From assembly GCF_900113605.1 (NCBI RefSeq), contig NZ_FOPY01000019.1:1-52670 (forward strand): a stretch of DNA of 52,670 bases, in the 5' to 3' direction. This DNA is from Modicisalibacter xianhensis (GTDB taxonomy: Bacteria > Pseudomonadota > Gammaproteobacteria > Pseudomonadales > Halomonadaceae). The notes under the pieces were generated by a model. That model was not told where the DNA came from. It made no database searches and saw only the letters and a list, made by a program, of their open reading frames with translations. The position numbers and the translations under genes were made by a program. Below, in pieces: positions 1,724-18,987 of the stretch; positions within the stretch are counted from its first letter, which is position 1; every line of letters begins with the position of its first letter.

Positions 1724-3064
1724 ATGTCGAAACAGCTTCACGCGCACTGGTCCTCACGGCTGGCCTTCATTCTTGCGGTAACGGGGTCGGCGGTTGGCCT
1801 GGGCAACATCTGGAAATTCCCATACATGGTGGGGGAGAGTGGCGGGGCCGCCTTCGTGCTCATCTACCTGATCTGTATCGCCTTCATCGGCCTGCCGATT
1901 CTGGTCGCCGAATGGCTGATCGGTCGGCGCGGCCAGAAGAACCCGATAAATACCATGGCCGAGCAGGCCCGGCTCAACGGCCGCAGCGGGCTGTGGACCG
2001 TCGTCGGTATCAGTGGCGTGCTGGGCGCGTTCCTGATCCTGTCGTTCTACAGCGTGATCGGTGGCTGGTCGCTGTCCTACACGCTGGGCTCGGTAACCGG
2101 CAACTTCAGCGGCCAGGACGCCGATGGCATCGGTGCACTGTTCGAAGGCATGCTGGGCAACCCGGGCATGATGCTGGGGTGGCATTCCGTGTTCATGCTA
2201 CTGGTCATCGGTATCGTCGCCCGCGGTGTCACCAAGGGCCTGGAAGGTGCAGTACGCACCATGATGCCGGCTCTGGCGGTGTTACTGCTGATCCTGGTCG
2301 GTTACGGCATGACCACCGGACATTTCGGCGAGGCGCTGGCCTACCTGTTCAATCCCGACTGGAGCAAGCTGACCGGCAGTACCGTCCTGGCCGCCCTGGG
2401 GCATGCCTTCTTCACCCTGTCGCTGGGTATGGGCATCATGATGGCCTACGGTTCCTACCTCGGTGAGGATGTCAGCCTGCTCAGGACGGCACGGACCGTG
2501 GTGATCATGGATACCGTCATCGCCCTAGGGGCCGGGTTGGCGATCTTCCCCATCGTGTTCGCCAACGGCCTGGACCTGGCCTCCGGCCCGGGGCTGATCT
2601 TCGTCACGTTGCCCCTGGCGTTCGGCAGCATGGCCGGCGGCACCATTCTGGGACTGATGTTCTTCCTACTGCTGACCTTTGCAGCACTGACCTCGGCCAT
2701 TTCGTTGCTCGAGCCAGTGGTCGAGTTCGTCGAGGAGCGGTCTCCGCTGGGCCGTGTCGGATCCGCGCTGGTTGCGGGAGCGGGCGCCTGGGCGCTGGGG
2801 ATTGCCGCGCTGCTGTCGTTCAACGTATGGAGCGATCCGCTGCTCTTCGGCCTCAACACCTTCGACCTGCTCGATACGCTGACCAGCAAGTTCATGCTGC
2901 CGCTGACCGGTCTCGGGGCGATTGTCTTCGCCGCCTGGTGTCTTGATCGCGACAGTGTCCACCGCGAACTGGGCCTCTCCGGGGCCGGTTCGACGATGTG
3001 GTCTCTCGCTGCCCGTTACATTGCGCCGCTCGGCGTGATCGTGGTTTTCGTCGGCAGTCTCTAG
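1724..3064 (+). CDS. Sodium-dependent transporter, NSS (SNF) family
   Basis: A 446-residue inner-membrane protein of the neurotransmitter:sodium symporter family, which co-transports Na+ with amino acids or related amines. TM1 carries the diagnostic unwound segment AVGLGNIWKFPYMVGESGG at about residues 20-38, where sodium and substrate bind. ALTSAISLLEPVVEF near residue 340 matches the TM8 sodium-site region. About 11 hydrophobic segments can be traced, typical of bacterial MhsT/TnaT-like members. ATG 1724 is chosen because AGGGTG lies just upstream and family alignment begins there; an in-frame start 105 bases earlier adds an unlikely tail. The substrate cannot be read from sequence. A salt-driven carrier suits a halophile. 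Confidence 0.9.
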   Translation: MSKQLHAHWSSRLAFILAVTGSAVGLGNIWKFPYMVGESGGAAFVLIYLICIAFIGLPILVAEWLIGRRGQKNPINTMAEQARLNGRSGLWTVVGISGVLGAFLILSFYSVIGGWSLSYTLGSVTGNFSGQDADGIGALFEGMLGNPGMMLGWHSVFMLLVIGIVARGVTKGLEGAVRTMMPALAVLLLILVGYGMTTGHFGEALAYLFNPDWSKLTGSTVLAALGHAFFTLSLGMGIMMAYGSYLGEDVSLLRTARTVVIMDTVIALGAGLAIFPIVFANGLDLASGPGLIFVTLPLAFGSMAGGTILGLMFFLLLTFAALTSAISLLEPVVEFVEERSPLGRVGSALVAGAGAWALGIAALLSFNVWSDPLLFGLNTFDLLDTLTSKFMLPLTGLGAIVFAAWCLDRDSVHRELGLSGAGSTMWSLAARYIAPLGVIVVFVGSL

Positions 3065-3073
3065 GGCGATGGC

Positions 3074-3301
3074 TCAGTGACGCCCCTTGTCTCGGGGCGT
3101 CTCGCCCGGGACATCGTCGCTCAGGTCGGCGATGTCCTTTTCCAGCCGCTTGATCTCGTTGTGACGTTCGATGCCTCGTCGGGCCCGCAGGTGGCGCACG
3201 GCGGCGTTTTTCTTGCGCGCTTCGTGCTCGGCCACTTGCAGTGACATGAAGATGTCGAGGAGTTCGTGTTTCACGGAGGCCAGGGGTTCGGCGTTACGCA
3301 T
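3074..3301 (-). CDS. Small charged hypothetical protein
   Basis: A 75-residue acidic/basic protein with no signal peptide or membrane segment. Residues 20-65 look helical, with ARKKNAAVRHLRARRGIERH and EIKRLEKDIADL repeating charged faces, so a coiled coil is possible. It is vaguely reminiscent of the small PA3496-type proteins of Pseudomonas, but I would not assign it. ATG 3301 is preferred because AGGAGAG lies 8 bases upstream. Its end is convergent with the sodium symporter, leaving 9 bases between the stops. A stem-loop (GACGCCCC/GGGGCGTC, 3079-3101) sits inside its last codons and probably ends the symporter transcript. Confidence 0.6.
   Translation of the reverse strand: MRNAEPLASVKHELLDIFMSLQVAEHEARKKNAAVRHLRARRGIERHNEIKRLEKDIADLSDDVPGETPRDKGRH
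3079..3101 (+). terminator. Stem-loop at the end of the symporter gene, inside the convergent ORF
   Basis: GACGCCCC (3079-3086) and GGGGCGTC (3094-3101) form an 8-bp stem with a 7-base loop. There is no clear T tract on the plus side. It lies in the 3' coding end of the small minus-strand gene. Confidence 0.4.
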
Positions 3302-16844: not shown

Positions 16845-18145
16845 GTCGCTTCGTCATCCTGCACGACCAGCCGTTCGGCCGGAAACACGCAGCGGAACAG
16901 CGCGCCTTCGCCGGGGCGGGAGTCGATCTCCAGTTGGGCGTCGTGACGCAGCAGCACGTGCTTGACGATGGCCAGGCCCAGCCCGGTGCCGCCGGTTTCC
17001 GCGCTACGCCCCTTGTCGACGCGGTAGAAGCGCTCGGTGAGGCGTGGGATGTGTATCGGATCGATGCCTTCACCGTCGTCCTCGACTTCCAGCGCCGCGC
17101 CATTGCGGTAGGGGCGCCAGCGTAGCGTGATCGTGCTGTCCGGCGGCGTGTAGCGCACCGCATTGAATACGAGGTTGGAAATAGCGCTGCGAATTTCCTG
17201 GGCGACACCGGACAGGCGGGCGCTTTCCTGAATTTCGACACGCAGCACATGCCGGTCGCCGGACAACGATTCGGCATCCTGGCGTACGCTGTCGAGCAGC
17301 CCGGGAATGTCGATGGGCTCGGCCTGCTCGACCTGATGATCGGTTTCCAGACGCGATAGCAGCAGCAGGTCGGTGACCAGGTTCTGCATACGTGTGGTCT
17401 GCTGCTGCATCTGTCCAATGCCGCGTTGCCAGCGAGGCGGCAACTGGTCCGCGTACTCGCCGTAGGTTTCCAGATAGCCGGCCAGTACGGTCAGCGGGGT
17501 GCGCAACTCATGGGATACGTTGGCGACGAAGTCGCGACGCATCTGCTCCAGGCGGTGCAGGCGTGTGATGTCGCGGGCCATCACCAGCCGTTCGTTGTCA
17601 CCGAACAGCGTGATCTGAAACTGCAGGACCAGGTCGTCGCGAATCGGGGAAGGCAGTGTCAGTGGCTCACGGTAATCGCGGGCGTTGAAGTACGCGATGA
17701 AACGCGGGTCGCGCAGCAGGTTGGTAACGTGCTGGCCACGGTCGTGGCGGGTCTGAAGGCCGAGCATGCGCTCGGCGGCGGAATTCCACCATTCCATGTC
17801 GCCGCGACTGTCGAGCATGACCACGCTGTCGCGCATGGCTTCCGAGGAGTCCTGCACGCGGCGGATGATGTCGCGCAGGCGTTCCTGGGTCTGGCGCTGG
17901 CCCTTCTGGTAGCGATACAGGCGGTCGAACAGATCGCCCCACACCCCCGTTCCTGCCGGCGGTTCCTGCCCCGGGTGCAGGGCCAGCCACACGTAGAGCT
18001 GGCGCAAATGGCGCAGGTGAATGAAGACGAACAGGCCCAGGCCGGCAGCCAGCCCCCAGCCCGGTTCGCCCAGCACCCAGCCCAACAGACCCAGGCCGCC
18101 GACCAGGTAGGCCAGCCGCCAGAGTTCATTGGTCCAGTAGTACAT
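16787..18145 (-). CDS. phoR: Phosphate regulon sensor histidine kinase
   Basis: A 452-residue membrane sensor kinase. The N-terminus has two close hydrophobic segments (about 10-25 and 28-45) without a periplasmic domain, as in E. coli PhoR, so signal comes through PhoU/Pst rather than a ligand. A PAS domain follows (about 95-195). The phosphoacceptor is His212 in FVANVSHELRTPL. The HATPase has N box NLVFNAVRYTPP, and GTGLGLAIVKH. It phosphorylates PhoB, encoded upstream on the same strand. Between them lies a 149-base palindrome, and the SD GAGG before ATG 18145 directly abuts its end. The C-terminal 20 residues are a polar tail that overlaps the fhuF-like gene. Confidence 0.95.
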   Translation of the reverse strand: MYYWTNELWRLAYLVGGLGLLGWVLGEPGWGLAAGLGLFVFIHLRHLRQLYVWLALHPGQEPPAGTGVWGDLFDRLYRYQKGQRQTQERLRDIIRRVQDSSEAMRDSVVMLDSRGDMEWWNSAAERMLGLQTRHDRGQHVTNLLRDPRFIAYFNARDYREPLTLPSPIRDDLVLQFQITLFGDNERLVMARDITRLHRLEQMRRDFVANVSHELRTPLTVLAGYLETYGEYADQLPPRWQRGIGQMQQQTTRMQNLVTDLLLLSRLETDHQVEQAEPIDIPGLLDSVRQDAESLSGDRHVLRVEIQESARLSGVAQEIRSAISNLVFNAVRYTPPDSTITLRWRPYRNGAALEVEDDGEGIDPIHIPRLTERFYRVDKGRSAETGGTGLGLAIVKHVLLRHDAQLEIDSRPGEGALFRCVFPAERLVVQDDEATQAGSRRMAQAAGSGQLPQ

Positions 18146-18152
18146 CGCGAGC

Positions 18153-18301
18153 CTCAGAGGGTGTTTACAAGATGGGCGAACGAAGGCACGGCAAGGCGAA
18201 ATTGAGCGAAAAAGCGCAGTTTACGAGAGGTAAATGAGCATTTTGAGAACAATTTCAACGCAGTATTGCCGAGTGCAGCCATTTTGTAGATACCCTCTCA
18301 G
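18153..18301. repeat. MITE-like imperfect palindrome filling the phoB-phoR gap
   Basis: The element starts CTCAGAGGGTGTTTACAAGA at 18153 and ends with the near reverse complement (ATTTTGTAGATACCCTCTCAG, 18281-18301): 19 of 23 terminal positions match across 18153-18175 and 18279-18301. Inner arms also pair (GGCACGGCAA with TTGCCGAGTGC; GAAATTG with CAATTTC), meeting at TTTAC-GAGAG-GTAAA in the centre. The whole 149 bases can fold as one long hairpin. The right end supplies the TGA stop of phoB, and the left end touches the SD of phoR. No other copy is in the window and no target duplication is obvious. Confidence 0.7.
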
Positions 18302-18987
18302 ACCCTGGCCGAGAAGCGATAGCCAGTACCGCGTACGGTCTGGATCATCTGCTGGTGAGGGTCGCCCAGCGCCTTGCGCAGGCGGCGGATATGCACGTCG
18401 ACGGTGCGTTCCTCGACATAGACGTTGCCGCCCCATACCTGGTCGAGCAACTGCCCCCGGGTATAGGCGCGCTCCTGGTGTGTCATGAAGAACTGCAGCA
18501 GGCGATATTCGGTAGGCCCGATTTCCAGTGCCTGGCCATGGGAGGAAACGCGATGGCTGGCAGGGTCGAGCAGCAGGCCCTCGACTTCCACCGCCTCTTC
18601 CACGCCGCGTGGCGTGGTGCGACGCAGTACCGCCTTGAGTCGTGCCACCAGCTCGCGTGGCGAGAATGGCTTGGTGATGTAATCGTCGGCGCCGGCCTCG
18701 AGCCCCTGAATCTTGTTGTCTTCCTCACCCTTGGCGGTAAGCATGATGATCGGCAACTCGGCGGTGGTTTCCTCGCGCTTGAGGCGCCGGGCGAGTTCGA
18801 TGCCGCTGGTACCGGGCATCATCCAGTCCAGCAACAGCAGATCGGGTTTCTCGTCGACCACCATGGCATGCGCGGTCTGGGCATTGTCCGCCTCGAGCAC
18901 GCGATAGTCGGCCATCTCCAGGGCCACGGCGATCATTTCCCGGATGGAGGCTTCGTCATCGACGATCAGAACGGTCTTCGAAGTCAT
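18298..18987 (-). CDS. phoB: Phosphate regulon response regulator
   Basis: A 229-residue OmpR-class response regulator. The receiver domain has the acidic pair at 10-11, phosphoacceptor Asp54 ([12 protein letters not shown]) and the conserved Lys in [14 protein letters not shown]. The C-terminal winged helix ends with [14 protein letters not shown] and [12 protein letters not shown]. It binds Pho boxes and activates pst and its own operon. A matching box lies 80-100 bases upstream (19066-19084). The stop codon falls within the terminal repeat of the palindrome that separates it from phoR. Confidence 0.97.

What the first reader, a model, noticed from the sequence alone, without database searches (positions are those of the whole stretch)
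18153..18301. A 149-bp MITE-like palindrome lies between phoB and phoR and supplies the phoB stop codon
The phoB-phoR spacer is almost wholly one imperfect palindrome with 23-base terminal arms (19 matches), inner pairing segments and a TTTAC/GTAAA centre. Its right end contributes the TGA that ends PhoB, and its left end abuts the GAGG site of phoR. On the mRNA it would form a long hairpin between the two reading frames and could set the PhoB:PhoR ratio by termination or mRNA stability. Only one copy is in the window, so family membership is inference.
Basis: partly seen in the sequence, partly recalled or inferred. Interest (0 to 1): 0.72.

Follow-up and report, generated by a model that had tools for sequence, protein, structure and literature searches.

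The report
Mobile hairpin in phoB stop codon
A 141-base hairpin-shaped jumping element without genes of its own has landed in the stop codon of the phosphate regulator gene phoB, duplicating it, and its central hairpin recurs in similar elements with different ends in other bacteria.

Summary
The palindrome is real and is a MITE. Its extent is 18157-18297 (141 bp), flanked by a 3-bp duplication TCA (18154-18156, 18298-18300). The 13 other genomes searched in the genus lack it between phoB and phoR. In the 12 readable base by base, phoB stops at the same codon: the TGA is ancestral and was duplicated, not supplied by the element.

Relatives occur in 14 of 14 genus genomes and 109 of 151 family genomes. 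IS5-family insertion sequences with the same ends and TNA duplications exist in related genera; none was found in this genome.

Two family-level findings go further. (1) A ~70-nt asymmetric hairpin core, with compensatory changes in 25 of 32 pairs, recurs in MITEs with at least six kinds of ends, in Gamma- and Betaproteobacteria, a Desulfobacterales bin and Bacteroidota bins; Rfam searches found no match there. (2) A striking stop-codon preference in one orientation did not replicate for this subfamily (7 of 28 hold-out copies at stops; null 42 of 164), though a stop excess did for the CTAG-duplicating subfamily. Any effect on PhoB:PhoR is untested inference.

The parts
18157..18297 (+). MITE, 141 bp, ends GAGGGTGTTTACAAGA and (reverse complement) GAGGGTATCTACAAAA; + is the strand on which the core reads GTAAATGAGCATTTTGAG
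   Evidence: alignment with relatives and end/duplication analysis; empty sites
18154..18156 (.). left copy of the 3-bp target duplication TCA
18298..18300 (.). right copy of the duplication TCA; read on the - strand it is the TGA stop of phoB
18192..18261 (+). conserved asymmetric hairpin core (CAAGGC ... AGTTTAC-loop-GTAAATGAGCATTTTGAG ... CAACGC)
   Evidence: alignment and covariation; wide occurrence
18298..18987 (-). phoB, 229 aa
16787..18145 (-). phoR, 452 aa; its ATG is 152 nt downstream of the phoB stop

Best explanation
It is a non-autonomous DNA transposon (MITE). An IS5-family transposase acting in trans recognised the GAGGGTGTTTACAAAA-type ends and inserted the 141-bp element into a C-TCA-G site that was the TGA stop codon of phoB. 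Repair of the staggered cut left TCA on both sides, so PhoB is unchanged and phoR keeps its start and a GAGG site, while the phoB-phoR gap grew from about 10 nt (as in L091) to 152 nt. Shown: ends, duplication, empty sites, unchanged stop, dispersed family, autonomous partner in related genera. Inferred: which transposase moved it (none with these ends was found in this genome), loss of phoB-phoR translational coupling, and any effect of the transcribed hairpin on PhoR. Stop codons are natural landing places because every TNA triplet is a stop codon on one strand and the duplication restores it.
For: 13 of 13 other genus genomes searched have phoB and phoR 10-21 bases apart in the alignment without the element; 12 of 12 readable have the same stop codon. 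72 of 105 full-length copies have a perfect 3-bp direct repeat, 68 of those TNA; hold-out 17 of 28, 15 of those TNA. IS L291 has perfect 16-bp ends, a TTA duplication and a 370-aa transposase at 192 bits (cut-off 110) for transpos_IS5_3; L288 and L290 have TAA and TCA duplications. ISPsy19 of P. syringae has similar ends and a 3-nt duplication (PMC3189936, passages).
Against: No IS with these ends was found in the window's own genome: one end match at up to 1 mismatch, the element itself, and 0 of 10 IS5_3 loci with a pair of such ends (L305 has a lone end-like site at 3 mismatches). 33 of 105 copies lack a perfect 3-bp repeat. Mobility was not observed.
Confidence: 0.9

Rival explanations
1. 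The hairpin has been adopted as a regulatory element of this operon and is kept because it sets the PhoB:PhoR ratio (attenuation, RNase III cleavage or 3'-end stabilisation).
For: It lies in the transcribed spacer of a two-gene operon and folds well; it separates genes that are about 10 nt apart in relatives such as L091.
Against: 13 of 13 other genus genomes do without it; the same family sits beside unrelated genes; no intrinsic-terminator-like site in 18000-18450.
Confidence: 0.1
2. For the shared core: the complementary changes come from template switching between the two arms of a palindrome during replication (quasi-palindrome correction, recalled), and not from selection for a folded RNA or single-stranded DNA.
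For: The outer arms, including the ends, stay complementary while their sequences differ between subfamilies. Among changes seen in three copies or fewer, G-U and A-C mismatches are nearly even, 34 to 25.
Against: Arm copying should erase mismatches, yet 5 of the 13 invariant columns are unpaired in the consensus structure (hand comparison). Over all cells G-U exceeds A-C, 191 to 96, but these cells are not independent.
Confidence: 0.35
3. The element is targeted to stop codons in a fixed orientation by the transposition machinery.
For: First set: 49 of 93 sites with a right-hand stop at the element edge against 3 left. CTAG subfamily: 15 of 23 and, in a hold-out, 11 of 25 sites at stops against 25 of 131 non-coding CTAG sites; orientation 13:1 and 7:2.
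Against: For the window's subfamily a hold-out of 28 sites gave 4 right, 3 left, 21 elsewhere, equal to the null; the first set was ranked by similarity to a query carrying TCA. Orientation is reversed in another subfamily (5 left, 0 right of 10 rows) and even in the exact-pattern set (about 7 right, 6 left, 1 both at offsets up to 3). The CTAG hold-out orientation alone has p 0.18.
Confidence: 0.12

Closest known systems
ISPsy19, IS5 family (P. syringae pv. phaseolicola; PMC3189936, passages read)
   Same: Ends GAGGGTGTAGACAAAAT, 3-nt duplication, 1178 bp with one transposase gene: very close to the ends and duplication of this element and of its partner IS (L291, 1194 bp).
   Different: Autonomous; no hairpin core is mentioned in the passages seen; target given as CHHD, here C-TNA-G.
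MITEPsy1 (PMC3189936, passages)
   Same: Short IS5-like MITE (100 nt) with GGAAGGTCTGAAAAAGCC-type ends, duplicating CTAG or YTAA, and caught transposing; resembles the CTAG subfamily found here.
   Different: Shorter, other ends than the window copy; its sequence was not printed in the passages, so presence of the core was not checked.
MITEAba12 (PMC6382973, passages)
   Same: Small non-autonomous element with ends matching a co-resident IS, spread over a bacterial family.
   Different: 113 bp, 9-bp duplications, identity to its IS confined to the ends; no core shared between elements with different ends in the passages seen.
Correia, RUP, ERIC, YPAL and CIR repeats (reviews PMC2229807 and PMC10969869, passages)
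   Same: Small dispersed repeats able to form RNA stem-loops.
   Different: Other ends and duplications (TA, or 3-26 bp for YPAL); in the passages seen they are described singly, not as one core with many kinds of ends.

Membership tests
Bacterial MITE | Terminal inverted repeats | tested here: met
Bacterial MITE | Target-site duplication | tested here: met
   TCA at both sides in the window; perfect 3-bp repeat in 72 of 105 copies and 17 of 28 hold-out copies
Bacterial MITE | Dispersed copies and an empty site in relatives | tested here: met
Bacterial MITE | Autonomous IS with the same ends | tested here: met
   In related genera: L291, L288, L290. Not met within the window's own genome
Bacterial MITE | Observed mobility | not testable with these tools
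   needs a transposition assay
IS5 family (partner IS) | Transposase over the curated cut-off of an IS5 model | tested here: met
   L291 ORF 192 bits, cut-off 110, transpos_IS5_3
IS5 family (partner IS) | IS1031-like subgroup with TNA duplications (recalled) | not tested
   TNA duplications seen, but no subgroup comparison was made
Intrinsic terminator | G+C-rich stem followed by a T run | tested here: not met
   0 sites in 18000-18450
Any Rfam family | Match over the core | tested here: not met
   no match, even at E up to 10 and 1, lies on the core; the matches listed are below gathering scores and elsewhere

The most novel reading that the evidence does not exclude
The core is one mobile structured module: a ~70-nt asymmetric hairpin with invariant internal-loop bases and covarying stems that rides in MITEs with at least six kinds of ends in Gamma- and Betaproteobacteria, Desulfobacterales and Bacteroidota. 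It does something general as folded RNA or single-stranded DNA, such as being read by a host factor or helping different DDE transposases copy the element, so that end specificities come and go around it.
Probability: 0.4. Interest if true: 0.85.

Novelty: new variant of a known kind. Interest (0 to 1): 0.58.

Why it matters
MITE families are usually defined by the ends of one parent IS. Here the inside is conserved across phyla while the ends differ, and the inside looks like a selected fold. That makes a question testable: what does a transposase-independent hairpin do for a gene-less transposon? For the locus, phoB-phoR in this strain is a natural experiment: a compact two-component operon opened by 141 bp without change to either protein.

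Tried and rejected
Rejected: that the element supplies the phoB stop codon.

Rejected for this subfamily: oriented stop-codon targeting. The first 93 sites looked overwhelming (49 right to 3 left, p about 1e-11), but they were ranked by similarity to a query that carried TCA at both ends. A hold-out of 28 independent sites from other genera gave 4 right, 3 left, 21 elsewhere. Also rejected: one orientation rule for all subfamilies (about 9 right to 1 left at offsets -6 to +3 by open frame alone; about 7 right, 6 left, 1 both; one subfamily 5 left, 0 right of 10 rows; hand counts from the printed rows).

Weak or inconclusive: G+C higher on the right flank (p 0.001 to 0.006 at 50 stop sites, 0.09 to 0.69 at 43 others); G-U against A-C asymmetry as a sign of the folded strand; IS copies at stop codons (1 of 8 copies examined, one of them fetched twice). 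Without result: Rfam over the core, terminator scan, phage records. Paper searches (open-access library only). In one search (three core strings, at least one required) 45 papers held a string and the 20 listed looked unrelated by title; none held the longest string. I recognised no listed paper on a shared core or on stop-codon insertion, but lists were capped (32: 25 of 38; 61: 15 of 196). Passages of six papers were read; none was read whole.

Rows dropped before counts: 12 of 105 copies as same-site duplicates; 12 of 40 hold-out copies (8 merged duplicates, 4 sites seen before); 3 duplicates in the CTAG set, leaving 23 (hand count); the 25 were not checked for duplicates and include a few with other ends. 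In one search, of 82 pattern matches, those near an end or without clear ends were set aside. Gene calls rest on my codon score trained on the window, not on a published gene finder.

Full report
What is there. The phoB-phoR spacer holds an imperfect palindrome as described: 19 of 23 terminal positions pair and the phoB-strand RNA folds to -54.8 kcal/mol, z -3.40. phoB and phoR are confirmed. Comparison with full-length relatives fixes the element at 18157-18297, 141 bp, ends of the type GAGGGTGTTTACAAAA, flanked by TCA on both sides.

Insertion, shown by relatives. In 13 of 13 other genomes searched in the genus the aligned phoB and phoR pieces lie 10 to 21 bases apart, without the element. 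In the 12 readable base by base, phoB ends at the same codon, 11 with TGA and 1 with TAA (read by eye; the 13th locus was cut by its contig end). The insertion therefore duplicated the stop codon. At three further stop-codon sites the orthologues fetched also stop at the same codon (3 of 3, 5 of 5, 10 of 10); at a fourth (an engB-like gene) 0 of 7 do, its C-terminus being variable; at a fifth no orthologue was fetched. Gene names at these sites are my reading of the translations, not family searches.

Family. The window's genome has 15 matching places. All 14 genus genomes, own included, have 4 to 40, and 109 of 151 family genomes, in 17 of 24 genera, have at least one. Of 105 full-length copies found in fetched loci, 72 have a perfect 3-bp direct repeat, 68 of these TNA (46 TCA, 8 TAA, 8 TTA, 6 TGA), usually in C-TNA-G. 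The TCA share is inflated because the query carried TCA; in the hold-out it is 3 of 17.

Partner. A search with the transposase piece of a broken IS in a congener (L070) matched 9 of 151 family genomes. L291 is 1194 bp with perfect 16-bp ends, a TTA duplication and a 370-aa transposase scoring 192 bits against a cut-off of 110 for transpos_IS5_3. L288 and L290 have TAA and TCA duplications. In the window's own genome no such IS was found: the partner is lost, missed in a draft assembly, or has diverged ends. Assignment to the IS1031-like subgroup is recalled, not tested.

The core. The other 14 places in the window's genome match only the inner part of the query. Searching with such a core copy and its arms gave matches in 72 of 369 sampled genomes of the class, 61 of 272 genera, own included. 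These keep the same centre, and 19 of 29 with assigned ends measure 137 to 142 bp, but ends and duplications differ: CAGGCTGTTGAAAAA with CTAG or TTAA, GAGRCCTTTGCACGA with 5 bp in two of three, and in the genus GCACTGTCTGAAAA/GGTTTGTCCGAAAA with CTAG and GAACCTGATCATGATC with TCA or TTA. The 80 listed include Pseudomonas, Marinobacter, halomonads, Thiotrichales, Methylococcaceae, Nitrosomonadales, one Desulfobacterales bin and several Alistipes and Bacteroidaceae bins. The Bacteroidota copies have ends of their own (GAGGTTGAATAAAAAG and similar) around the same centre, which speaks against contamination, but they are metagenome bins and finished genomes are needed. In plasmids 14 of 72,556 records match (13 Pseudomonas, 1 Halomonas); in the phage collection none.

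Structure. On 53 sequences that I selected for diversity, the predicted hairpin has 32 pairs, 25 with compensatory changes; 96.8% of cells pair, against 80.5% in shuffles (0 of 500 reach any of the five measures) and 37-42% in slid controls. The structure was derived from the same alignment, which flatters the slid control, and shuffles ignore relatedness. Of 13 invariant columns 5 are unpaired, which simple arm copying would not preserve. Loop length varies, which suits a folded single strand better than a protein dimer on duplex DNA (inference). Whether RNA or single-stranded DNA matters, and which strand, is open: in 79 copies of the window's subfamily G-U cells outnumber A-C cells 191 to 96, but only 34 to 25 among changes seen in three copies or fewer.

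Stop codons. In the first set 46 of 93 distinct sites had the stop of a right-hand gene exactly at the element and 3 a left-hand one; allowing ends assigned 1 or 2 bases off, 49 and 3. The null is 42 of 164 non-coding C-TNA-G sites in 452,670 bases of genus DNA (p about 2e-6). I distrusted this because the copies were ranked by similarity to a query carrying TCA. A hold-out of 28 independent copies from other genera gave 7 at stops, 4 right and 3 left: no excess and no orientation. For the CTAG subfamily, whose target is palindromic and lay outside the aligned query, 15 of 23 sites (hand count) and 11 of 25 hold-out sites overlap a stop, against 25 of 131 non-coding CTAG sites (p 2e-5 and 0.017). 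Orientation was 13:1 and 7:2 (together p 0.0005, hold-out alone p 0.18). Another subfamily shows the reverse, 5 left to 0 right of 10 rows. Cautious reading: landing on a stop codon is what a TNA or CTAG rule plus avoidance of coding DNA gives; an extra bias in some subfamilies is possible and unexplained.

How it probably works here. The cut at the phoB stop left both proteins intact. The phoB stop and phoR start, 10 nt apart in L091, are now 152 nt apart, so any translational coupling should be lost and phoR translation should depend on its own GAGG site behind a large hairpin. That predicts lower or unchanged PhoR; it is inference.

Verdict. The individual copy is an ordinary MITE insertion with a neat consequence, a duplicated stop codon. 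The hairpin core that is independent of the ends and crosses phyla is the part worth pursuing.

Noticed in passing
L291:838-1950: The partner IS5 transposase carries an N-terminal stretch (residues about 2-64) matching IS630- and Tc3-type helix-turn-helix models weakly, ahead of the IS5 catalytic domain.
   Followed up: no
L294:773-1966 and 1970-3163: Two copies of the same 1194-bp IS lie side by side with only TTA between them.
   Followed up: no
L077:867-913; L083:1516-1563: Palindromes of about 47 bp made of two facing ends only, without the core.
   Followed up: no
L033, L044, L046: Longer forms (about 158 bp) carry a 16-base insert near the centre resembling GGGCTCGC...CGAG, on the left in L033 and on the right in L044 and L046.
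   Followed up: no
G010 contigs C1, C8, C9 (L071-L073): Contigs begin about 60 bases from a copy of the element end, which suggests that a repeat with these ends breaks the assembly there.
   Followed up: no
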